64,000 nucleotides of DNA from the NCBI GenBank assembly GCA_021805865.1, contig JAJZDX010000012.1, forward strand, positions 62,001-126,000, read 5' to 3'. Shown piece by piece: positions 49,090 through 64,000 of the stretch (position 1 is the first letter of the stretch; each line of letters starts with the position of its first letter). Made by a program: the position numbers and the translations under genes. The notes under the pieces were generated by a model. It saw only the letters and a program-made list of their open reading frames with translations. It was not told the origin of the DNA and made no database searches. Origin of the DNA: Pseudomonadota bacterium (GTDB taxonomy: Bacteria; Pseudomonadota; Gammaproteobacteria; Steroidobacterales; Steroidobacteraceae).

Positions 49090-49211
49090 GAACGGCCGTA
49101 CATGGATGTACGGGCTGGGGGCTTATCCAGGGACGAATCTGGCACGGCCCTCACCAGGTCGCGTATGGTGCCGGGAACGTTTGTATCGGACGCGGAGAGA
49201 TGGCCGAGTGG
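49089..49211 (+). repeat. tandem direct repeat, unit 2 (ends in the real tRNA-Ser)
   Basis: This copy is offset by 171-172 bp from unit 1 and runs into the intact tRNA-Ser gene. Its palindrome is CCGTACAT-GG-ATGTACGG at 49096-49113; both arms changed together relative to unit 1, which keeps the pairing. Confidence 0.85.
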
Positions 49212-49284
49212 TCGAAGGCGCACCCCTGCTAAGGGTGTAAGGGTCAAAAGCCCTTCGAGGGTTCGAATCCCTCTCTCTCCGCCA
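49194..49284 (+). tRNA. serX: tRNA-Ser (anticodon GCU)
   Basis: GGAGAGA at the 5' end pairs with TCTCTCC at 49274-49280, followed by G and the encoded CCA (49282-49284). The anticodon loop is CTGCTAA, giving GCU for AGC/AGU codons. A long variable arm (AAGGGTCAAAAGCCCTT) and T-loop GGTTCGAATCC confirm serine type. The gene follows csrA as in other gammaproteobacteria. Its 3' end, then the integrase 164 bp later, marks a likely island attachment site. Confidence 0.95.
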
Positions 49285-51129: not shown

Positions 51130-51954
51130 TCAGCTGCGAGCGATGTTTGAGGGCCTGGGTAACACAATATGTCGGTCGTGCGATTGTGCCCGGTCCTGAG
51201 CGGCCTGATCTGTCCGGAAGGATGAATCCGCCATCTCGCGCCGCTCTCTGTCTCTGCGGACAGCATGGGCGTACACGACGTGTCTTGGCGTGGCCTGCGT
51301 TTGTATGCGCGATCGGCGCCGAGTGGTCACGCCGCTCCGAGCGTCGCCTCCCTCCACGCGGTGCTGCAGATACACGAGCGTGCGCGCCACATAGATCTTG
51401 GCCATCCGTGAGCTGATCCGCATGGCTTGCCCGACATCCTCGAATGGCAAGCGCTGCGCGATCCGGAGGATGAACGCCTGGCGCTCTCTCGACGGCAATT
51501 CGCTCACCGCCTGATTCAGCAATGTCCAACGTTCTCGCGCATCCGCCGCGGCTTCAGCAGAAGGCGTGACTTGCGCCTCCTGCACGGACAGCGTTTCGGC
51601 AATGCGATTCCAGCGCTGACGCGTGCGTCCGTGATCCGTTGCGATGTTCAGCGCGCTGCGCCACAGGTAGCGGTCTAGGGCTTGGATTGCGTCCGTGCGC
51701 GCAGATGCAAGTATTCGGACATACGCATCCTGGATGATGTCCTCCGCTTCCGCACGGGATCCAGTCCGTCGAGACAGAAAGCGCAGGAGTGGCTGATGCT
51801 GGAGACGGAAAATGTTGGATAGAGCTTCCGTAAGAACCGCAGGGTCTTTGGTCTGAAGCGGAACCGCTGCGCACGCCGGGTGGCGGTCGATCGTGCTGGG
51901 CGGCGTTGTGTCCGGGAGCATCTGTTCACGGGCTTTGTTCGGGAGACGTTTCAT
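51130..51954 (-). CDS. ECF-type sigma factor (FecI-like) with long C-terminal tail
   Basis: The ATG at 51954 has GGAGGT 4 nt upstream and gives 274 residues. Sigma region 2 is visible (LLRFLSRRTGSRAEAEDIIQDAYVRILA ... LDRYLWRSALNIATDHGR) and region 4 (LPSRERQAFILRIAQRLPFEDVGQAMRISSRMAKIYVARTLVYLQH). This matches FecI-type ECF factors. The remaining about 70 residues are basic and low-complexity, longer than the family norm. No anti-sigma gene of the FecR type follows; a 92-residue protein precedes it in the same direction. Confidence 0.75.
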   Translation of the reverse strand: MKRLPNKAREQMLPDTTPPSTIDRHPACAAVPLQTKDPAVLTEALSNIFRLQHQPLLRFLSRRTGSRAEAEDIIQDAYVRILASARTDAIQALDRYLWRSALNIATDHGRTRQRWNRIAETLSVQEAQVTPSAEAAADARERWTLLNQAVSELPSRERQAFILRIAQRLPFEDVGQAMRISSRMAKIYVARTLVYLQHRVEGGDARSGVTTRRRSRIQTQATPRHVVYAHAVRRDRERREMADSSFRTDQAAQDRAQSHDRHIVLPRPSNIARS

Positions 51955-51985
51955 GATCACCTCCAAGGTCGCTTCATGAGGTCGG

Positions 51986-52685: not shown

Positions 52686-53312
52686 ATGTCCCTGCATAGC
52701 TACCTGCTGTTCGTCCTGGCCGCCTTGGCACTCGTTCTCGCTCCCGGCCCGGACATGCTGTACATGCTGGGGCGGTGCGTGGCGCAGGGGCGCCGCGCGG
52801 GGATTCTCTCCGCCCTCGGGTTCAGTCTCGGCGGGCTTGTCCATATCACTGCTGCCGTGCTGGGGCTCTCGGCGCTTCTGGCCGCATCCGCCACGGCGTT
52901 CACCGTCATCAAATGGGTGGGTGCCGCGTATCTCGTGTACTTGGGGCTGAGCACACTGTGGCGCAGGCCCGCGTCGCCTGCGTTCGACGCTCACGCCGCA
53001 GGGGTCCGCGGCCGTACGATTCTCTGGCAGGCTTTCCTGAGCGATGTCCTGAACCCCAAGGTGGCGCTGTTCTTCCTCGCGCTGCTGCCGCAGTTCGTCG
53101 AACGCGACGCGCCGCATCCGGCCCTGCAGATCCTGTTCCTCGGACTGACGGTGAGCGTCATCGCGCTGCCGACCAATCTCCTGATCGTCTGCTGCGCGGA
53201 TCGGATTACCGGGAGCCTGCGCCGCAATGCCTCGGTCTCTCTTTGGCTTCGGAAAGGCCTCGGTGTGCTGTTCATCGCCCTCGGTCTGCGATTCGCGGTC
53301 GAGAAGATCTGA
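52686..53312 (+). CDS. LysE-family amino-acid exporter
   Basis: The 208-residue protein has six hydrophobic helices and the LysE/RhtB signature near the start: LYMLGRCVAQGRRAGILSALGFSLGGLVHI. It probably exports an amino acid, homoserine lactone or similar small solute. It starts an accessory block with a YciI-like gene and an ECF41 sigma factor. No frameshift. Confidence 0.88.
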   Translation: MSLHSYLLFVLAALALVLAPGPDMLYMLGRCVAQGRRAGILSALGFSLGGLVHITAAVLGLSALLAASATAFTVIKWVGAAYLVYLGLSTLWRRPASPAFDAHAAGVRGRTILWQAFLSDVLNPKVALFFLALLPQFVERDAPHPALQILFLGLTVSVIALPTNLLIVCCADRITGSLRRNASVSLWLRKGLGVLFIALGLRFAVEKI

Positions 53313-53371
53313 TCGGGTCCCGAGCCGTCACACTCGCACCCCGCCGTCCGTCATGGGGTGAGGAGGTGACC

Positions 53372-53728
53372 ATGCAATACGTACTGCTGATTTTCCACGG
53401 ACCCACCCCGCTAGTACCGGGCTCGGATCGCTGGAAGGCCCTGTCCGACACGGAACAGAAGGCGATCTACGCGGACTACGCGGCACTCGGCAAGACCCCG
53501 GGAGTGACACCAGGATTGCCCCTGGGGCTGCCCAAGGACGCCAAGACTGTCCGGGTCCAAGGTGGAGAGCCCGAGGTCCAGAACGGAACGTATCTCGCCG
53601 AATGCGCCGGCGGGTACCTGGTGCTGGAGGCCGAGAACATGGACGCCGCAGTCGCGCTCGCTGCCCGCATCCCGGCGGCCCGCCTGGGCGGAGCGATCGA
53701 GATTCGGCCGGCTGAGCAATACTGGTAG
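53372..53728 (+). CDS. YciI-like (DGPF domain) protein
   Basis: The 118-residue protein begins MQYVLLIFHGPTP and contains the YciI/DGPF pattern; GGEPEVQNGTYLAECAGGYLVLEAENMDAAVALAARIPAARLGGAIEIRPAEQYW covers the second half. A GGAGGTGACC ribosome site lies just upstream. YciI-like proteins are commonly coupled with ECF41 sigma factors, and here the next gene is one, starting 0 bp after its stop. Its enzymatic role (hydrolase or sensor) is unknown. Confidence 0.85.
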   Translation: MQYVLLIFHGPTPLVPGSDRWKALSDTEQKAIYADYAALGKTPGVTPGLPLGLPKDAKTVRVQGGEPEVQNGTYLAECAGGYLVLEAENMDAAVALAARIPAARLGGAIEIRPAEQYW

Positions 53729-54649
53729 GTGCCTGAGCAGGGGACCCGGAGCGCAAAGGCGAGGGCGCGGATGGACGACGACTGGCTGGCAGAGCAGTTC
53801 GATGCGCACCGGACCCGGCTGCGGGCGGTGGCCTACCGCATGCTGGGCTCGGTCAGCGAGGCCGAGGATGCGGTGCAGGAGACTTGGCTGAAGCTCAGTC
53901 GATCGGACTCCGAGCGCGTGCAGAATCTCAGTGGATGGCTGACGACAGCTCTGACACGGGTGTGTCTCGACATGCTGCGTACCCGCCGCTCGCGGCGCGA
54001 GGATCCGCTGGAGCTCACACCCGAAACGTCAGGTGAGGGCAGTCCTGATGAGGATCTCGCCCTGGCCGATGCGACGGGCTCCGCGCTGATGGTCGTCCTC
54101 GAGACGCTGGTGCCGGCGGAGCGGGTGGCCTTCGTTCTGCACGATCTGTTCGACCTCTCATTCGAGGACATTGGTCGCATCCTGGAGCGGACCCCTGTGG
54201 CGGCCCGGCAGCTCGCCAGCCGCGCAAGGCGCCGGGTGCGGGGAACGGAAACCCCTCCCGCCGACTTGGCGCGGCACCGCGAGTTGGTCGCGGCATTCCT
54301 CGCCGCATCGCGCGAGGGGGATTTCAATCGCCTGCTCGCGGTGCTGTCCCCTGATGTCGTGCTCCGAGCCGACCATCTGGCGGTGAGCACGGCGGCAGCC
54401 CGACAGCGCCACGGCGCCCCCGATCTGGTGCCGGAACTCCGAGGCGCAGAGGCAGTCGCGACGGTCTTCAAGGGACGGGCGCAGGGCGCAGTATCGGCGC
54501 TCATCGACGGTGAGCCCGGGGCGGTCTGGGCGCCGGGGGGGCAGGTCCGGGCCGCATTCCTGTTCGCCCTGAAAGGAGAGCAGATCGGAGCGCTCGACAT
54601 CGTCACCGAACCGGGGGACCTGGCCGAACTCGACGTCAGAATCGAATGA
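53729..54649 (+). CDS. ECF41-type sigma factor with SnoaL-like regulatory domain
   Basis: A GTG at 53729 directly follows the YciI stop; ATG at 53771 (MDDDWLAEQF) would give a 292-residue protein with a more usual N-terminus. Regions 2 and 4 are visible (RLRAVAYRMLGSVSEAEDAVQETWLKL; LVPAERVAFVLHDLFDLSFEDIGRILERTPVAARQLASRARRRV). A C-terminal domain of about 120 residues of the SnoaL-like type (AFLAASREGDFNRLLAVLSPDVVLRADH) is the ECF41 hallmark and regulates activity in cis, replacing an anti-sigma factor. Targets are typically the neighbouring YciI-type gene. Confidence 0.85.
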   Translation: MPEQGTRSAKARARMDDDWLAEQFDAHRTRLRAVAYRMLGSVSEAEDAVQETWLKLSRSDSERVQNLSGWLTTALTRVCLDMLRTRRSRREDPLELTPETSGEGSPDEDLALADATGSALMVVLETLVPAERVAFVLHDLFDLSFEDIGRILERTPVAARQLASRARRRVRGTETPPADLARHRELVAAFLAASREGDFNRLLAVLSPDVVLRADHLAVSTAAARQRHGAPDLVPELRGAEAVATVFKGRAQGAVSALIDGEPGAVWAPGGQVRAAFLFALKGEQIGALDIVTEPGDLAELDVRIE

Positions 54650-56506: not shown

Positions 56507-59386
56507 GTGACGGCGAACCTCACCCCACACCAAGCCCAATACTTCGCTTGGCTGCTGACCCGGCGAACCGCCAACGATTCGGTCGAGTCCCTGGCATCCA
56601 CCTTGGTGGATTCCCAGGTGGACCTGAATCCGCATCAGGTCGATGCCGCGCTGTTCGCCTGTCGCAACCCGCTTTCGCGCGGCGTGATCCTGGCTGACGA
56701 AGTCGGTTTGGGAAAGACCATCGAGGCGGGCCTGGTCATCTCGCAGCGGTGGGCGGAGCGCCGTCGCCGCATCCTCATCATCGTTCCGGCCAACCTGCGT
56801 AAGCAGTGGCACCAGGAGATGCAGGACAAGTTCGGTTTGCAGGGCGTGATTCTGGAAGCCAAGAGTTACAATGCCATCCGCAAGCAACAGCAGCAGAATC
56901 CGTTTCAGTCATCCAGTCCGGTGATCTGTTCCTACCAGTTCGCCAAGGCCAAAGCCGACGACATCAAGGACATTGCGTGGGATCTGGTCGTGCTCGACGA
57001 AGCGCACCGCCTGCGCAACGTGTACAAGCCCAGCAATGTCATCGCCAAAACCCTCAAGGAATCGCTGGCGCGAGTCCATTCCAAAGTGCTGCTGACGGCG
57101 ACGCCGCTGCAGAACTCGCTGCTGGAACTGTACGGCCTGGTCAGCATCATCGATGACAGGGTATTTGGCGACATCGACAGTTTCCGGGCGCAGTTCACCA
57201 ACAATGGGCGGGAAGCGGCCTTTGCGGGCCTGCGCCAGCGCCTTGGGCCGGTATGCAAGCGCACGCTGCGCAAGCAGGTGCAGCCGTACGTCTCCTACAC
57301 GGCCCGCAAAGCCATCGTCCAGGAGTTCACACCGTCGAGCGAGGAACAGGAGCTTTCCAGGCTGGTTGCGGACTATCTGCGTCGCCCCAATCTGAATGCG
57401 CTGCCTAATGCACAGCGGCAGCTGATCTCGCTGATCCTGTGGAAACTGCTGGCGTCCAGCACCCATGCCATCGCCGGCGCGTTGGAAACGATGATCACAC
57501 GCCTGCAAGGGGTGCTGGAGAATACGAAGGCAGTTCCAGATCTCACTGTCGAGCTGGATCAAGATTACGAATCGCTCGACGAAACCGCGGACGAATGGGG
57601 CGTTGAGGACGCTGAAATTCCGGTCCCGGCCCAGAGCGAGCGGAATGCCATTTCGGAGGAAATCGACGAGCTGCGTCGGTTCAAGATGCTGGCGACCAGC
57701 ATCCGGGATAACGCCAAGGGCAAGGCGTTGCTGATTGCCCTGGATCGGGCCTTCGCTGAATTGGAAAGATTGGGTGCTGCGCGCAAAGCGATTATCTTTA
57801 CCGAGTCCCGGCGCACCCAGGAATACCTCCTCAATTTGCTGGCAGAGACCCACTACGGCGAGAGTATCGTGCTCTTCAATGGCACGAACAGCGACGCGCG
57901 TGCTCAGGCCATATACAAGGAGTGGCTCAAACGTCACGAAGGAACCGACCGCATCAGCGGCTCAAAAACCGCGGATACCCGGGCTGCACTGGTCGAACAC
58001 TTCAAGGAGCGCGGCAAGATCATGATTGCCACCGAGGCGGGGGCTGAAGGCATCAATCTTCAGTTCTGTTCGCTGGTCATCAACTACGACTTACCGTGGA
58101 ACCCACAGCGCATCGAGCAGCGTATCGGCCGCTGCCACCGCTATGGCCAGAAGTTTGATGTGGTGGTGGTGAACTTCGTCGATCGCAGCAATGAGGCCGA
58201 CGCCCGCGTATACGAATTACTGGATCAAAAGTTCCAGCTTTTTACGGGAGTTTTCGGGGCCAGTGACGAAGTGTTGGGCGCCATCGGCTCGGGCGTGGAC
58301 TTCGAGCGGCGTATTGCCGACATATACCGGAATTGCCGCAGCCCCAGCGAGATAAAGGCTAGTTTCGAGCAGCTTCAGTTGGACCTTTCTGGCGAAATCA
58401 ACGAGGCAATGGTTAGGACGCGCCAGGTATTGCTGGAGAATTTCGACGAGCAGGTGCAGGAGAGACTGCGCGTCAGTGCCGAAGACAGCAAGAACGCGCG
58501 TAACCGCTTCGAGCGGATACTGGTCGATTTGACCCGCGCTGAGTTGGGGGAATGGGCCGATTTCGATGATGGCGGCTTCCATCTGCATCGCCTGCCGGAC
58601 GGCATAGAAAGTGGAGACGATGTGGGCATCGAGCTTGGCCGCTACGAATTGCCTCGCCGCTCCGGAGAGGCGCACCTATACCGCATTAATCATCCGCTGG
58701 CGCTGTGGGTGACTAAACAGGCCAAGGGTCGCGTGCTCGACGGCGCCAAGTTGGTGTTCGACTACGGCGGGCACGGCACGAGGGTCAGCACGCTGGAGCC
58801 GTACCGTGGCAAGTCGGGATGGCTTACCTTGAAATTGGTGTCCGTCGAGGCCCTGGGTAACCAGGAGCAGCACTTGCTGGTCGCGGCAAGTACCACCGAC
58901 GGCGCGGCGCTGGCAGAGGAAGATCCGGAGAAGCTATTGCGCCTGCCGGCTACCGCCACGGGGGCGAACCTGTTCACCCATGCGGGTAACGCCGTCCTGC
59001 TTGCGGATGTGGAGGCTCGCAAAGGCTCGCTGCTCCGGGAGATCAATCATCGCAATCTTGGATACTTCGAGCAGGAGGTCCAGAAGCTGGACGCCTGGGC
59101 GGACGACCTCAAAGTCGGGCTGGAGCAGGAGATCAAGGAGATCGACCGCGAGATCAAGGAAGTGCGCAGGACAGCCGCAACATCGCCAACGCTGGACGAA
59201 AAACTGGTGCACCAGAAGCGGCAGCGCGAACTGGAAGGAAGGCGCAGCAAGCTCCGCCGGGAATTGTTTGTACGCCAAGACGAAGTGGAAGCTCAGCGTA
59301 ACAACGTCATCACCGAACTTGAGGCGCGGCTCCAACAGCAGGTCCAGGAGCGTACGCTGTTCACCATCGAATGGGAGCTGATGTGA
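56507..59386 (+). CDS. SNF2-family DEAD/DEAH helicase (RapA-like), defence-type operon
   Basis: The GTG at 56507 has AGGAGG 8 nt upstream and gives 959 residues; a GTG at 56468 is less well placed. Walker A is DEVGLGKT (Lys70), the DEAH box at Asp164 reads LDEAHRLRN, the motif III TATPLQNS follows, and motif VI QRIGRCHRYGQ closes the second RecA fold. The C-terminal third is helical with a coiled coil (EQEIKEIDREIKEVRRTA), not a nuclease I recognise. SNF2 helicases with such tails occur in anti-phage systems including DISARM-type and related loci. The stop overlaps the next start (GTGA). Confidence 0.85.
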   Translation: MTANLTPHQAQYFAWLLTRRTANDSVESLASTLVDSQVDLNPHQVDAALFACRNPLSRGVILADEVGLGKTIEAGLVISQRWAERRRRILIIVPANLRKQWHQEMQDKFGLQGVILEAKSYNAIRKQQQQNPFQSSSPVICSYQFAKAKADDIKDIAWDLVVLDEAHRLRNVYKPSNVIAKTLKESLARVHSKVLLTATPLQNSLLELYGLVSIIDDRVFGDIDSFRAQFTNNGREAAFAGLRQRLGPVCKRTLRKQVQPYVSYTARKAIVQEFTPSSEEQELSRLVADYLRRPNLNALPNAQRQLISLILWKLLASSTHAIAGALETMITRLQGVLENTKAVPDLTVELDQDYESLDETADEWGVEDAEIPVPAQSERNAISEEIDELRRFKMLATSIRDNAKGKALLIALDRAFAELERLGAARKAIIFTESRRTQEYLLNLLAETHYGESIVLFNGTNSDARAQAIYKEWLKRHEGTDRISGSKTADTRAALVEHFKERGKIMIATEAGAEGINLQFCSLVINYDLPWNPQRIEQRIGRCHRYGQKFDVVVVNFVDRSNEADARVYELLDQKFQLFTGVFGASDEVLGAIGSGVDFERRIADIYRNCRSPSEIKASFEQLQLDLSGEINEAMVRTRQVLLENFDEQVQERLRVSAEDSKNARNRFERILVDLTRAELGEWADFDDGGFHLHRLPDGIESGDDVGIELGRYELPRRSGEAHLYRINHPLALWVTKQAKGRVLDGAKLVFDYGGHGTRVSTLEPYRGKSGWLTLKLVSVEALGNQEQHLLVAASTTDGAALAEEDPEKLLRLPATATGANLFTHAGNAVLLADVEARKGSLLREINHRNLGYFEQEVQKLDAWADDLKVGLEQEIKEIDREIKEVRRTAATSPTLDEKLVHQKRQRELEGRRSKLRRELFVRQDEVEAQRNNVITELEARLQQQVQERTLFTIEWELM

Positions 59387-62300
59387 CGACCAAGAGAGAA
59401 CTCGCCCGCGGGGCACTTTGGAGGCAGTGGGACTTGCACATCCACACGCCTGCCTCGTTCCACTGGTTGGGGCAGAAGTTCACTGGCGATCCGTCATCAG
59501 ACCAAAGCAAGAAATTGGTCGATGAAATGATCGAAGCCATGAACAAGGCAGAACCCGCTGTGTTCGCCATCATGGACTACTGGACCTTCGACGGCTGGCT
59601 TGCGCTGCAAAGGCGCTTGAAGGAGCAAGGCGCGCCACAGCTGAAGAAGCTGGTCTTCCCCGGAATCGAGCTTCGACTTGCAGCTCCGATGAAGGGCCGG
59701 CTGAACGCTCATGTTCTCTTCGCCGACAACATCGACGGACAGGCGCTGCTGGATTTCAAGTCTGCACTTCGAGTCGAACTGGTTGACAAGCCACTCTCTG
59801 ATACGGCGCTGAAGGAAGTGGCGAGAAAGGTTGGAGAGGATAAGCTCAAGTTCCACGGCTTCAAGAAGGATGAAGTCTACGCCTCCGATGAGAAGGCCCT
59901 GTTGGCGGGTGCAGTGATCGCAGAGATCAACCCAGACTCATATCGCGACGCAATCAGAAAAGTGCCTAATGACCGTGCTATCGGTTTCATGCCGTTTGAC
60001 ACCAGCGATGGCCTTGAGGAAGTGAAGTGGCAGGAACACTACGCCTACGTCATGAAGCTCTTCCAGAGTTCACCAATTTTCGAGACACGCGACGTCGACC
60101 TGCGCAGCGCCTTTGTCGGCGAGACGACTCCGGGCAACTCCAAGTTCATCAAGAACTTTCAGGCGGCCCTGAACAATACCCCGCGTCTGGCTGTATCGGG
60201 GAGCGATGCGCACTGTTTCATCGGGAGTGGTACCAACGATAAGCGCGGATACGGCGACTTCCCCTCCGGCAAGAAGACGTGGATAAAGGCAGACCCTTCG
60301 TTCCGCGGTCTCAAGCACGCCATTCTTGAGCCGGCGAAACGCTCCTTCATCGGAGATAAGCCGCCCAAGCTTCTCGAGGTCGAATCCAACAAGACCTTCT
60401 ATATCGAATCCGTTGAGATCACCAAGACGGGCGACAAGGACGTAGGGCAGTGGCTCCACGGCTGTGACCTCCCGTTGAACCCCGAACTTGTGGCGGTCAT
60501 CGGGAACAAGGGCAGCGGCAAGAGCGCCTTGGCGGATGTCATCGCCACGCTAGGCTATTCCAAACAGACCAAGCACTTCAGCTTTCTGAAGCGAGACCGA
60601 TTCCGCGGGAAGACCGGGGAGCCTGCGCGGCACTTCACCGGAACACTGACCTGGAAAGACGATAGCACTCAGGCTCGGCTGCTCAGCGAAGACCCTCCTG
60701 AGGAGAAGGCAGAGCTGGTGCGCTACATCCCGCAGGGTTACTTCGAGGAGCTTTGCAACGAGCACGTGTCTGGCAAGTCGAACGCTTTCGAGAAGGAACT
60801 GCGGTCGGTGATCTTCTCCCACGCGAGCGAAGAAATGCGGCTCGGTGCGCTCGACTTCGATCAACTGACGGAGCAGCAGGAAATGTCTCTCCGAAACAGG
60901 TTGGGCGAGTACCGAAAGGATCTGGCCTCGTACAACGCATCCATCGTGCGTATCGAGGAACAGCTTCAGCCTGTCGAACTGAAAAGGCTCACGGAGTTGC
61001 TTCTGCTGAAGACAAAGCAGATTGATGAGCACGACAAGTTAAAGCCTGCGGAGGTCGTTCAGCCCACCGAGGCGCTGACTCCAGAGCAGAAGGAGGCCAC
61101 GGAGGGGCTGGCCGCGGCAAGTCAGCAAGTCGAGGCCGCCAAGAAGCGCACGCAGGAGATAGCCACCGAAACCACTGAGCTGGCCAAGCGGCAGAAGGCC
61201 ATAGCGAATATTCGGGAGCAGTTAAGGCTGCTTCAGCGCGCCTTTGAGCAGACGGAGAAGGCGACATCCGAAGACCTTAAGCTGCTTGGAATCACTTGGT
61301 CTGACCTCGCTTCCATCGTCATCAAGACAGGTTCATTGGACCAGAGATCGACCGAACTCACAACCAAGCAGAACGAGCTGAGGACCGAGTCGGAGAATGT
61401 AGCACAAGACCTCAAGATCCACATCGAGGCGCAGCAGAGGTTTGCTGCAAAGCTGAACGCACCCCAGCAGCAGTTCGAGACCTACCAGCGCCAGCTAGCC
61501 GAGTGGAACAGCAAGCGGGAGGAACTGGTCGGGTCGCCGACAGAACCGGAGTCCAAGGTCGGTATTGAAACGCGGATCGAGCAGATTAAGGCACTGCCAG
61601 ACCAACTCAAGGAACTGGAGGCGAAGCGCCTGAAGCTCTCCGGTGAGATTTTCGACACGCTCGACTCGCAACGCAAGGCACGCGCAGACCTGTTCAAGCC
61701 GGTTCAGGACTTGATCCAGAAGGATGGTCTCATCAACGAAGGCTACCAATTGCAGTTCCAGGCGACTCTTGCTGCGTCTGCGGAAGCAATTGCCGATCAG
61801 CTGTTTGCTCTGATAAAGCAGCAGTGGGGGGACTTTCGTGGGCAAGACGACGCGCTGTCGAACATCAAGAAGCTGTTCGACAGCCATGACCTAAATAGCA
61901 AGGATGGCGCACTTGCGTTCGTAGCCGCTCTGCAGGACAAGGTCTTAGAAGCGGCCAAAGCGGCTGGGTCGGCTGTCGGCGTCTTCAACCTTCTGAAGAA
62001 GGGACAGTCGGCTGGAGCCGTGTACGACCTGATCTTCGGGCTCAACTTCCTTGAGCCTCGCTACTCCTTGCTGTTCCAGGAGACGCAGATTGAGCAACTC
62101 TCTCCGGGCCAGCGCGGTGCGCTCTTGTTAATCTTCTATCTGTTGGTGGACAAGGGCAAGACGCCCATCATCTTGGATCAGCCGGAGGAGAACCTTGATA
62201 ACGAGACGGTTTTCCGTCTGCTTGTGCCCGTTCTGTCGGAAGCCAAGAAGCAGCGGCAAATCATCATGGTCACGCACAACCCAAACCTGGCGGTTGTGTG

Positions 62301-62475
62301 CGACGCGGAGCAGATCATACATGCGAGGTTCAATAGGGCCTCGAACTCGACCATCAGCTATGAATCGGGCGCCATCGAGAACGCGGGGCTGAACGAGGCC
62401 GTTGTGACCGTGCTGGAAGGTACGAAGCCCGCTTTCGACAATCGCTCGGGTAAGTACCACCGCAAGAATGACTAA
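59383..62475 (+). CDS. TrlF-type protein: PHP domain fused to SMC-like ABC ATPase
   Basis: The GTG at 59383 overlaps the helicase stop; the product is 1030 residues. The N-terminal PHP-type phosphoesterase domain starts WDLHIHTPASFHW (His19 and His21) and includes SGSDAHCF. An ABC/SMC ATPase domain follows: Walker A GNKGSGKSALADV from residue 374, a coiled-coil region of about 300 residues, signature QLSPGQRG near residue 907, and Walker B TPIILDQPEENLDNE with Asp932. By family memory this is the arrangement called TrlF-family AAA-like ATPase, seen in conflict and RNA/DNA damage loci. PHP chemistry suggests nucleic-acid cleavage triggered by the ATPase. Confidence 0.8.
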   Translation: MTTKRELARGALWRQWDLHIHTPASFHWLGQKFTGDPSSDQSKKLVDEMIEAMNKAEPAVFAIMDYWTFDGWLALQRRLKEQGAPQLKKLVFPGIELRLAAPMKGRLNAHVLFADNIDGQALLDFKSALRVELVDKPLSDTALKEVARKVGEDKLKFHGFKKDEVYASDEKALLAGAVIAEINPDSYRDAIRKVPNDRAIGFMPFDTSDGLEEVKWQEHYAYVMKLFQSSPIFETRDVDLRSAFVGETTPGNSKFIKNFQAALNNTPRLAVSGSDAHCFIGSGTNDKRGYGDFPSGKKTWIKADPSFRGLKHAILEPAKRSFIGDKPPKLLEVESNKTFYIESVEITKTGDKDVGQWLHGCDLPLNPELVAVIGNKGSGKSALADVIATLGYSKQTKHFSFLKRDRFRGKTGEPARHFTGTLTWKDDSTQARLLSEDPPEEKAELVRYIPQGYFEELCNEHVSGKSNAFEKELRSVIFSHASEEMRLGALDFDQLTEQQEMSLRNRLGEYRKDLASYNASIVRIEEQLQPVELKRLTELLLLKTKQIDEHDKLKPAEVVQPTEALTPEQKEATEGLAAASQQVEAAKKRTQEIATETTELAKRQKAIANIREQLRLLQRAFEQTEKATSEDLKLLGITWSDLASIVIKTGSLDQRSTELTTKQNELRTESENVAQDLKIHIEAQQRFAAKLNAPQQQFETYQRQLAEWNSKREELVGSPTEPESKVGIETRIEQIKALPDQLKELEAKRLKLSGEIFDTLDSQRKARADLFKPVQDLIQKDGLINEGYQLQFQATLAASAEAIADQLFALIKQQWGDFRGQDDALSNIKKLFDSHDLNSKDGALAFVAALQDKVLEAAKAAGSAVGVFNLLKKGQSAGAVYDLIFGLNFLEPRYSLLFQETQIEQLSPGQRGALLLIFYLLVDKGKTPIILDQPEENLDNETVFRLLVPVLSEAKKQRQIIMVTHNPNLAVVCDAEQIIHARFNRASNSTISYESGAIENAGLNEAVVTVLEGTKPAFDNRSGKYHRKND

Positions 62476-64000
62476 GCAAAAGCTTGAACTGACGTGGATC
62501 GGGAAGGGGAAGCGACCGAAGCTGGAGCCGCGCATCCTCCTTGAAGGCGCAGAGAGGTCGTATCACGCGAGACATCGCGTGTCGGACGCGGACATTTTCG
62601 ATAACCGGCTGATCTTCGGCGACAACTTGTTGGCATTGAAGGCGCTGGAGGCGGAGTTCGCAGGAAAGGTGAAATGCGTGTTCATCGATCCGCCGTACAA
62701 CACGGGTAGCGCGTTCACGCATTACGACGATGGGTTGGAACATTCGATCTGGCTGGGGTTGATGCGCGACCGGCTAGAAATCATCCGGCGGCTGCTGGCG
62801 GACGATGGTTCGCTGTGGATCACGATTGACGACAACGAGGCGCACTATCTAAAGGTGTTGTGCGACGAAATCTTTGGCCGCGCGAATTTTGTTGGAAACA
62901 TCGTGTGGCAGAAGAGATATTCACGTGAGAATAGGGTAATCCTCGGCGACGCACATGACCATATGCTGATTTATGCGAGAGATGCGTCCCGCCTACGCGG
63001 TGCATTCAATAAATTACCCCTCGAAGAGAAACAAAGGCAGGTTTACAAGAATCCAAACTCAGATCCAAAAGGGCCTTGGCGTGGCGTATCTCTTGCCGCT
63101 CAGGGTTATCGTCCCAATCAGATGTACACGATTACAGCTCCCAATGGGAAGCAACATAAACCTCCGGCAGGTTCGTGTTGGAAGGTAATTGAATCGAAAT
63201 ATTTTGAGCTTCTTAAGAACGACCTAATTTACTTCGGAAAAGATGGGAATGCCGTTCCTTCGCGGAAACAATTCTTGAAGGATATCGAGGGTGTAGTTCC
63301 GTGGACGTGGTGGCCTCACGAAGAGGCTGGGCATACCGACGAGGCGAAGAGAGAGAGTCAAACCCTATTCGGAGTAGAGAACGCATTCGGCACACCAAAG
63401 CCGGAGCGTCTCCTGTTTCGCGTTGTCCATATCGCCACTAATCCTGGCGACATTGTTCTTGATTCCTTCGCCGGCTCCGGCACTACTGGCGCAGTCGCGC
63501 ACAAAATGGGCCGCCGTTGGATAATGGTGGAACTTGGTGAGCACATTCATACGCACATCATCCCGCGCCTGAAGAAGGTCATCGACGGCGAGGACAAGGG
63601 TGGCATTACCGAAAGCGCGGGTTGGCGGGGCGGTGGCGGTTTCCGCTACTACAAACTCGCGCCCAGCCTAATTGTCAATGATCGCTGGGATAATCCTGTC
63701 ATCAACCCTGCTTACAATGCAGCGCAACTGGCCGAGGCCCTAGCCAAGTTGGAAGGCTTTGCTTACGCTCCCTCGGAAACGTGCTGGTGGCAGCACGGCC
63801 ATAGTAGTGAGCGGGATTTCATCTATGTCACGACGCAGAACCTTTCCGCTGAGCAGTTGCAGGCACTGGCCGAGGAAGTGGGCGCGGATCAAAGCCTGTT
63901 GGTATGTTGCTCCGCCTTCCACGGCGTGACGGCGGCGAAAGCGGCGGAACGCTGGCCGAACCTGACGCTGAAGAAGATCCCGAAGATGGTTCTGGCTCGC
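62468..64000 (+). CDS. type III-like DNA methyltransferase (Mod), partial at the window end
   Basis: The ATG at 62468 overlaps the TrlF stop by 8 bp, and the frame stays open through 511 codons to the window end. The beta-class order is seen: catalytic motif DPPYNTG at residues 74-80, then a target-recognition region, then the SAM motif DSFAGSGTTG from residue 332. This fits N6-adenine (or N4-cytosine) methylation by a type III Mod subunit. The target-recognition segment (about bases 62890-63400) is visibly more AT-rich than its neighbours. Close coupling to the helicase and TrlF genes makes them one system; a Res-type nuclease could follow outside the window. Confidence 0.88.
   Translation, partial: MTKQKLELTWIGKGKRPKLEPRILLEGAERSYHARHRVSDADIFDNRLIFGDNLLALKALEAEFAGKVKCVFIDPPYNTGSAFTHYDDGLEHSIWLGLMRDRLEIIRRLLADDGSLWITIDDNEAHYLKVLCDEIFGRANFVGNIVWQKRYSRENRVILGDAHDHMLIYARDASRLRGAFNKLPLEEKQRQVYKNPNSDPKGPWRGVSLAAQGYRPNQMYTITAPNGKQHKPPAGSCWKVIESKYFELLKNDLIYFGKDGNAVPSRKQFLKDIEGVVPWTWWPHEEAGHTDEAKRESQTLFGVENAFGTPKPERLLFRVVHIATNPGDIVLDSFAGSGTTGAVAHKMGRRWIMVELGEHIHTHIIPRLKKVIDGEDKGGITESAGWRGGGGFRYYKLAPSLIVNDRWDNPVINPAYNAAQLAEALAKLEGFAYAPSETCWWQHGHSSERDFIYVTTQNLSAEQLQALAEEVGADQSLLVCCSAFHGVTAAKAAERWPNLTLKKIPKMVLAR

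What the first reader, a model, noticed from the sequence alone, without database searches (positions are those of the whole stretch)
56507..64000. Helicase, PHP-SMC ATPase and Mod methyltransferase form one overlapping operon on a tRNA island
Seen: a SNF2 helicase, a TrlF-type PHP-ABC protein and a DPPY methyltransferase overlap by 4 and 8 bp, lie beyond mobilisation genes on a tRNA-Ser island, and share no sign of metabolic function. Known: SNF2 helicases, PHP or SMC-like ATPases and Mod subunits each occur in anti-phage systems, but this combination is not one of the standard systems (type III R-M lacks the first two; DISARM uses a different methylase and DrmABC). Inference: the methyltransferase marks self DNA, the helicase senses or moves along foreign DNA, and the PHP-ATPase cuts nucleic acid.
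Basis: partly seen in the sequence, partly recalled or inferred. Interest (0 to 1): 0.82.

Follow-up and report, generated by a model that had tools for sequence, protein, structure and literature searches.

The report
Restriction operon with a swappable effector
The three genes are the visible part of a five-gene DNA-restriction operon whose helicase, methylase and nuclease genes recur in other bacteria while the gene lodged between them (here TrlF) is often a different, mostly defence-linked gene, so the window shows one example of a plug-in slot inside a restriction system.

Summary
In detail: a DrmD-like SNF2 helicase, a TrlF-family PHP-SMC protein and a type III Mod methylase form an overlapping operon on a tRNA-Ser island. 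The window cuts it: the remaining 4.6 kb of the contig adds the rest of Mod, a YhcG nuclease and a type III Res; a 24-bp near-copy of the tRNA end lies 33 bp past Res.

The grouping is only partly right. The recurring unit is helicase-Mod-Res. Of 59 Res-anchored loci besides our own, 38 were informative; 30 carry the helicase, and 22 of these 30 hold another gene (100 aa or more) between helicase and Mod: AIPR, IetAS, Lamassu-like, HEC-01, AlbA_2, Dsr2 and others. One of the 30 has TrlF, 33% identical to ours. Two loci 92% identical in the helicase carry TrlF versus Dsr2, similarity ending and resuming at the gene borders.

Best reading: a type III restriction operon with an extra helicase and exchangeable back-up effectors. 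No function was measured. Embedding of defence genes in restriction operons is known; this chassis with its slot looks like a new variant.

The parts
49194..49284 (+). tRNA-Ser (GCT); its 3' 24 bp (49261-49284) are the left attachment repeat; the right near-copy is at window-frame 68007-68030, outside the window
   Evidence: ARAGORN; blastn of the tRNA region against the contig piece
49448..50638 (+). tyrosine integrase
   Evidence: Pfam PF13356, PF22022, PF00589
50652..50984 (-). AlpA-type regulator
   Evidence: Pfam PF05930
54838..55386 (+). MobC/NikA-like mobilisation protein
   Evidence: Pfam PF21983
55370..56359 (+). MobA/VirD2-type relaxase
   Evidence: Pfam PF03432
56507..59386 (+). DrmD-like SNF2 helicase, chassis gene 1 (GLGKT, DEAH, QRIGR present)
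   Evidence: best-scoring solved structures RapA
59383..62475 (+). TrlF family: N-terminal PHP domain, long helical middle, SMC/Rad50-type ATPase; exchangeable slot-1 gene (longest ORF starts 59371)
   Evidence: NF045780 669 bits; conserved ligands and ATPase motifs; fold
62468..64000 (+). type III Mod methyltransferase (DPPY, FxGxG), chassis gene 2; runs on to 64159. YhcG/DUF1016 nuclease (64156-65211, slot 2) and type III Res (65208-67973, chassis gene 3) follow outside the window

Best explanation
The operon is a type III-like restriction-modification system with an extra DrmD/RapA-like SNF2 helicase as a usual third gene. It carries exchangeable second-line effectors in two slots: slot 1 between helicase and Mod (here TrlF) and slot 2 between Mod and Res (here YhcG). 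Inferred working: Mod methylates host sites through its variable recognition domain; Mod-Res cuts unmethylated DNA; the helicase moves along or clears foreign DNA for Mod-Res. TrlF uses its SMC-type ATPase to sense DNA or a stalled or inhibited restriction complex, and its PHP metal site then cuts nucleic acid or nucleotides as a back-up, as PrrC backs up a type I system. Shown here: gene content, conserved motifs, the recurring chassis, exchange of the slot-1 gene, signs of mobility. Inferred: every biochemical step. The confidence is for chassis plus exchangeable effector slot; the guard step alone I put at about 0.3.
For: Mod and Res match type III families (PADLOC MTase_III 655 bits for the window part of Mod, REase_III 705 bits) and EcoP15I (Mod E 1.6e-30; Res weak, E 3.7e-5). 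In relatives above a score limit: Mod D74, P75, P76 and F334, G336, G338 in 67 of 67, Y77 in 59 of 67; helicase motif residues in 51 of 51; Res D831, E844, K846 in 73 of 74. Mod residues 141-300 average about 30% identity to the window's, 41-140 and 321-380 about 75-87%, as for an exchanged recognition domain. Chassis: 30 of 38 informative Res-anchored loci have the helicase; slot 1 filled in 22 of 30, slot 2 in 8 of 30, both empty in 8 of 30 (ORFs of 100 aa or more). Slot-1 genes matched to families: IetA 329 bits (L109), HEC-01A 586 and HEC-01B 261 (L106), Dsr2 478 (L156), AlbA_2 75 (L113), AIPR 127 (L036); others named by similarity to these. Clean exchange: L043 (TrlF) and L156 (Dsr2), helicase DNA 92.4% identical to 11 bp before its stop, similarity back (87%) from 9 bp inside Mod. 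FastTree trees: slot-1 label changes at least 21 times on 50 Res rows (minimum 12) and 15 on 47 helicase rows (minimum 10); TrlF alone 6 and 4.
Against: No activity, methylation or phage data. Slot label is more clustered than shuffled labels (21 against a mean of 30.7; 15 against 27.6; as low in 0 of 200), and TrlF identity follows chassis identity (rho 0.67 with the helicase, 66 dependent pairs), so exchange is not free. In 8 of 38 informative loci Mod-Res has no helicase, so it is not obligatory. Close pairs among the 30 loci (such as L172/L173, L143/L151, L145/L147) are not independent. Target of the PHP domain unknown. Slot genes could be passengers. 5 of 22 filled slots have no family match (L147 only by similarity to L145; L150 by Pfam alone), and one holds DUF6119, of unknown function.
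Confidence: 0.66

Rival explanations
1. Same chassis and slot, but the slot genes are independent defence genes that ride in the operon for shared expression and spread; TrlF does not sense or depend on the restriction proteins. (This overlaps the best explanation and rivals its guard step.)
For: 13 of 13 stand-alone TrlF loci checked have no chassis helicase or Res; PADLOC lists IetAS and Dsr2 as systems of their own. [quoted passage not shown]
Against: One conserved TrlF clade (66-83%) stays with the chassis across distant genera, and the same position is used by several families that would need tight control (inference).
Confidence: 0.45
2. Helicase, TrlF and Mod work as one obligatory new system, and Res and YhcG are extras.
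For: 17 of 20 loci with close TrlF have all three.
Against: Res is in the same operon here. Helicase-Mod-Res occurs without TrlF in 29 of 30 loci, 8 of them with both slots empty: L114, L140, L143, L144, L151, L169, L170, L171; these loci were found through Res, so they cannot show helicase-Mod pairs that lack Res.
Confidence: 0.07
3. A variant of DISARM that has exchanged its methylase.
For: The helicase's best named families are DrmD (PADLOC 657 bits, NCBIfam DrmD_b 666 bits).
Against: 666 bits is below the DrmD_b cut-off of 950; the MZB domain family PF09369 is absent from the genome, 0 of 1; the best matches of the other operon proteins are TrlF, type III and YhcG families.
Confidence: 0.04

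Closest known systems
Type III restriction-modification (EcoP15I type)
   Same: Mod (DPPY, FxGxG, variable middle) and Res (helicase motifs, C-terminal PD-ExK) in one operon
   Different: A usual third gene, the DrmD-like SNF2 helicase, and effector genes inside the operon; here YhcG between Mod and Res
DISARM (DrmD)
   Same: SNF2 helicase of the DrmD type next to a DNA methylase
   Different: Type III Mod and Res instead of DISARM's methylases and DrmABC (composition recalled); helicase below the DrmD cut-offs
PrrC in the type I system PrrI
   Same: SMC/Rad50-like ATPase effector inside a restriction operon, a second line of defence there (PMC3710099, passages)
   Different: PHP domain instead of a HEPN RNase; type III chassis; masking by the restriction complex not shown here
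Defence genes embedded in defence operons (TgvAB, PMC11411939; RptR islands, PMC12255303; BREX back-up effectors, PMC12839542; Payne et al. 2024 preprint, seen only as cited)
   Same: Effectors lodged among the core genes of a host system; in four genomes a putative RNA-binding protein + AAA-like ATPase pair lies between hsdS and hsdR; that this pair is TrlG/TrlF-like is my guess
   Different: The passages I saw concern type I R-M, Hma and BREX; none describes this helicase-Mod-Res chassis
TRL locus of Photorhabdus (trlG/trlF/trlR)
   Same: Source of the TrlF name; AlbA_2/HATPase_c_4 proteins, the domains of TrlG, occupy slot 1 in L113
   Different: No TrlG-like gene beside our TrlF; TRL is reported as a temperature-restriction locus, and its authors found no mutations in trlF (PMC7554251, passages)
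Hma / BREX-related systems
   Same: SNF2 helicase with a methylase; the helicase matches HmaA at 183 bits
   Different: Hma: m5C methylase HmaB and ATPase HmaC (DUF499) (PMC8565338, PMC12839542, passages)

Membership tests
Type III restriction-modification | Mod with DPPY and FxGxG and a central target-recognition region | tested here: met
Type III restriction-modification | Res with helicase motifs and C-terminal PD-(D/E)XK nuclease, in one operon with Mod | tested here: met
   GVGKT, DESH, QSIGR, PD-ExK; PF04851, REase_III 705 bits; only YhcG lies between
Type III restriction-modification | Adenine methylation of one strand of an asymmetric site and two-site cleavage | not testable with these tools
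   needs methylome and biochemistry
DISARM | Helicase over a curated DrmD cut-off | tested here: not met
   NF038318 666.4 bits, cut-off 950; NF038317 273.6, cut-off 610
DISARM | DrmB (MZB/DUF1998 domain; its link to DrmB is recalled) | tested here: not met
   PF09369 0 of 1 genome (98.75% complete draft); 8 of 14 control genomes ring
DISARM | DrmA and DrmC present | not tested
   no direct search of the genome
NCBIfam TrlF family (NF045780) | Score over the curated cut-off across the full profile | tested here: met
   669.1 bits against 350, profile 1-944 of 944
NCBIfam TrlF family (NF045780) | PHP domain with metal ligands | tested here: met
TRL locus | TrlG-like AlbA_2/HATPase_c_4 gene beside TrlF | tested here: not met
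   none among the operon proteins scanned
Hma | m5C methylase HmaB | tested here: not met
   methylase matches the N6/N4 family PF01555; HmaB is not among the 25 PADLOC rows shown of 58
Hma | ATPase HmaC | tested here: not met
   not among the 12 PADLOC families of TrlF or the 7 of Res
Embedded effector in an R-M operon | Gene at a fixed position exchanged for unrelated ones while flanking genes stay | tested here: met
Embedded effector in an R-M operon | Effector released when restriction is inhibited | not testable with these tools
   needs experiments

The most novel reading that the evidence does not exclude
The helicase-Mod-Res complex is a general-purpose sensor with a socket: whichever effector is plugged in behind the helicase (PHP-SMC, Dsr2, IetAS, AIPR, AlbA_2) is held in check by the same complex and released by the same cue, such as restriction being blocked. 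That would be a modular immune receptor with interchangeable outputs rather than a set of neighbours.
Probability: 0.15. Interest if true: 0.82.

Novelty: new variant of a known kind. Interest (0 to 1): 0.52.

Why it matters
It turns an odd three-gene find into a rule that can be tested: one restriction chassis, many effectors at one place. The slot is a search rule for unknown effectors: 5 of 22 filled slots hold genes with no family match. It also suggests a defence role for TrlF, which among the papers I saw is named only in a temperature-restriction locus, and it offers matched loci such as L043/L156 (near-identical helicase, different effector) in which a shared trigger can be tested directly.

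Tried and rejected
A 16-bp helicase/TrlF overlap in the TrlF loci looked like a fixed cassette border; one search shows it comes from taking the earliest start codon, read across the helicase's conserved C-terminal Trp codon, so I dropped it. A Shine-Dalgarno-like 4-mer lies in the last 18 nt of 36 of 57 helicase genes; no shuffle control was run and the rows are related, so it is only a hint.

DISARM and Hma were considered and not upheld (membership test). Viral-contig scans with TrlF and with the helicase found no relative, yet the Res scan brought L154, which has both, so such pattern scans miss relatives. The helicase model is poor (pLDDT 63.6) and was not searched. The phage collection gave only partial TrlF matches, 0 of 7 with 80% coverage. 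The TrlF search of 369 class genomes found 20 over the cut-off, own included; their loci have only about 1.5 kb flanks, and no chassis gene was seen in the 19 others.

Literature: ten searches. In their listings and the passages I opened I met no description of this helicase-Mod-Res chassis or of TrlF within it; the library is limited, most listed papers were not opened, and the Payne et al. preprint was not opened. The cited papers were seen as passages only.

Dropped before counting: of 59 Res-anchored loci other than our own (20 regions, 19, 20), 20 had no helicase and under 7 kb upstream of Mod, or no Mod in view, and 1 (L115, broken chassis, no Mod) was set aside; 38 were informative. The Res limits were E 1e-60 (class) and 1e-100 (phylum). 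The hit of genome G077 was not fetched. trees used FastTree, mix Res-anchored, TrlF-anchored and plasmid loci, and give one label per locus (TrlF where TrlF and AIPR occur together; AIPR for L105).

Full report
What is there. They lie on an island entered at tRNA-Ser (49194-49284) with an integrase, an AlpA regulator, a MobC/NikA-like protein and a relaxase. The window ends inside Mod; the contig ends 4.6 kb further on. In window coordinates Mod ends at 64159, a YhcG/DUF1016 PD-ExK nuclease lies at 64156-65211 and a type III Res at 65208-67973. A 24-bp near-copy (95.8%) of the tRNA end stands at 68007-68030, so the island is about 18.8 kb, the operon takes up its last three fifths, and Res is its last gene.

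Relatives with TrlF. A scan of genome contigs with TrlF gave 27 loci. In 20, TrlF is 66-83% identical, and all 20 have the helicase and/or Mod beside it, 17 both. Hosts include Stenotrophomonas, Stutzerimonas, Lysobacter, Dyella, Nitrosomonas, Thauera and an Anaerolineales assembly. The 23-kb stretch is 99.0% identical between the Stenotrophomonas and Stutzerimonas loci and 96.7% between Stenotrophomonas and Lysobacter, which points to recent transfer. In 10 of the 20 an AIPR gene follows TrlF. In the other 7 loci and in 6 plasmid loci, TrlF is 58% identical or less; 0 of 13 have the chassis helicase, Res or YhcG in view, and one (L067) has a weak Mod-like match of 54 bits. The view is 7-10 kb on both sides for 11 of them; L050 shows 139 bp upstream and L054 2.1 kb downstream.

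Relatives found through Res. Searches gave 21 of 369 class genomes at E 1e-60 and 20 of 398 phylum genomes at E 1e-100, each including our own, and 20 viral-collection loci. I held neighbourhoods for 59 loci other than our own. Helicase present: 30; absent with at least 7 kb upstream of Mod: 8; too little sequence: 20; broken: 1. Of the 30, slot 1 is filled in 22: AIPR (6 loci, one of them with a Lamassu-like SMC ATPase too), AlbA_2 (3), IetAS (2), single loci with a Lamassu-like SMC ATPase, HEC-01, Dsr2, an AAA_13/PDC-S06 protein, DUF6119 and TrlF (L154), and five without a family match. Families were assigned by profile for representatives and by similarity to them for the rest. Slot 2 is filled in 8 of 30: YhcG (2), RhuM (2), a cluster of which one member (L107) matches zeta toxin (3), one unknown. 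The helicase-less loci also carry such genes, for example IetS at 1077 bits in L116 and KwaB at 463 bits in L108. Plasmids add AbiD, PLD/NgoFVII-like, an AAA ATPase + DUF4276 pair and AIPR. E. coli and Cupriavidus plasmids pair the helicase with much more distant methylase and nuclease genes and an empty slot.

Exchange. L043 (Nitrosomonas, TrlF) and L156 (Dsr2) share 92.4% of helicase DNA up to 11 bp before the stop, no detected similarity across the slot gene, and 87% again from 9 bp inside Mod; both have YhcG in slot 2, and L043 also RhuM. In L042, L044 and L046 TrlF is closer to ours (67-75%) than the chassis is (55-61%). In L154 TrlF is 33% identical, less than stand-alone TrlF (50-58% in L047, L050, L053, L054), so TrlF probably entered such operons at least twice. 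The slot label changes at least 21 times on the Res tree and 15 times on the helicase tree (minima 12 and 10), though it is more clustered than shuffled labels, and TrlF identity still follows chassis identity (rho 0.67, 66 dependent pairs). Mod's middle, residues 141-300, also varies, as expected for sequence specificity.

How it probably works. Mod marks host DNA; Mod-Res, perhaps helped by the helicase, cuts unmarked DNA; TrlF and YhcG add further nuclease or phosphoesterase responses. The closest worked-out logic is PrrC with PrrI, where the effector acts when restriction is inhibited (PMC3710099, passages). For TrlF this is inference. The passenger reading, in which the slot only gives shared expression and transfer, is at least as likely as the guard step. 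The numbers given for the best explanation (0.66) and the passenger rival (0.45) overlap: both accept the chassis and slot.

Compared with what is known. Defence genes inside type I, Hma and BREX operons are described (PMC11411939, PMC12255303, PMC12839542, passages). In ten searches of a library that lacks much of the literature I met no description of a DrmD-like helicase with type III Mod-Res and such a slot, nor of TrlF in it. I rate it a new variant of a known kind.

Noticed in passing
G000:C50:40228-43119 (L174:10214-13141, - strand): The same genome has a second TrlF-family gene (584.5 bits) on another contig; its neighbours were listed as ORFs only.
   Followed up: partly
window 51130-51966: A sigma-70-type factor (Pfam regions 2 and 4) lies inside the island between AlpA and an HTH gene; its targets are unknown.
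   Followed up: no
window 52686-54649: By eye, unsearched: a LysE/RhtB-like transporter, a YCII-like protein and an ECF sigma-like gene sit in the island before the mobilisation genes, so it also carries genes that do not look like defence.
   Followed up: no
L004:6335-6601 (window frame 68334-68600): A ParD-type antitoxin gene begins beyond the right attachment repeat and is cut by the contig end.
   Followed up: no
L145:7469-8245, L138:6912-8243, L107:5034-6113 (-), L098:6585-8168, L150:6052-6885, L045:15006-17003: Slot-1 genes without a Pfam match (all but L150 also without a PADLOC match); candidates for unknown effectors.
   Followed up: partly
L108:9859-10881 (-): A KwaB-like gene (463 bits) together with IetAS before Mod-Res, without the helicase in 8 kb; KwaA was not searched for.
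   Followed up: no
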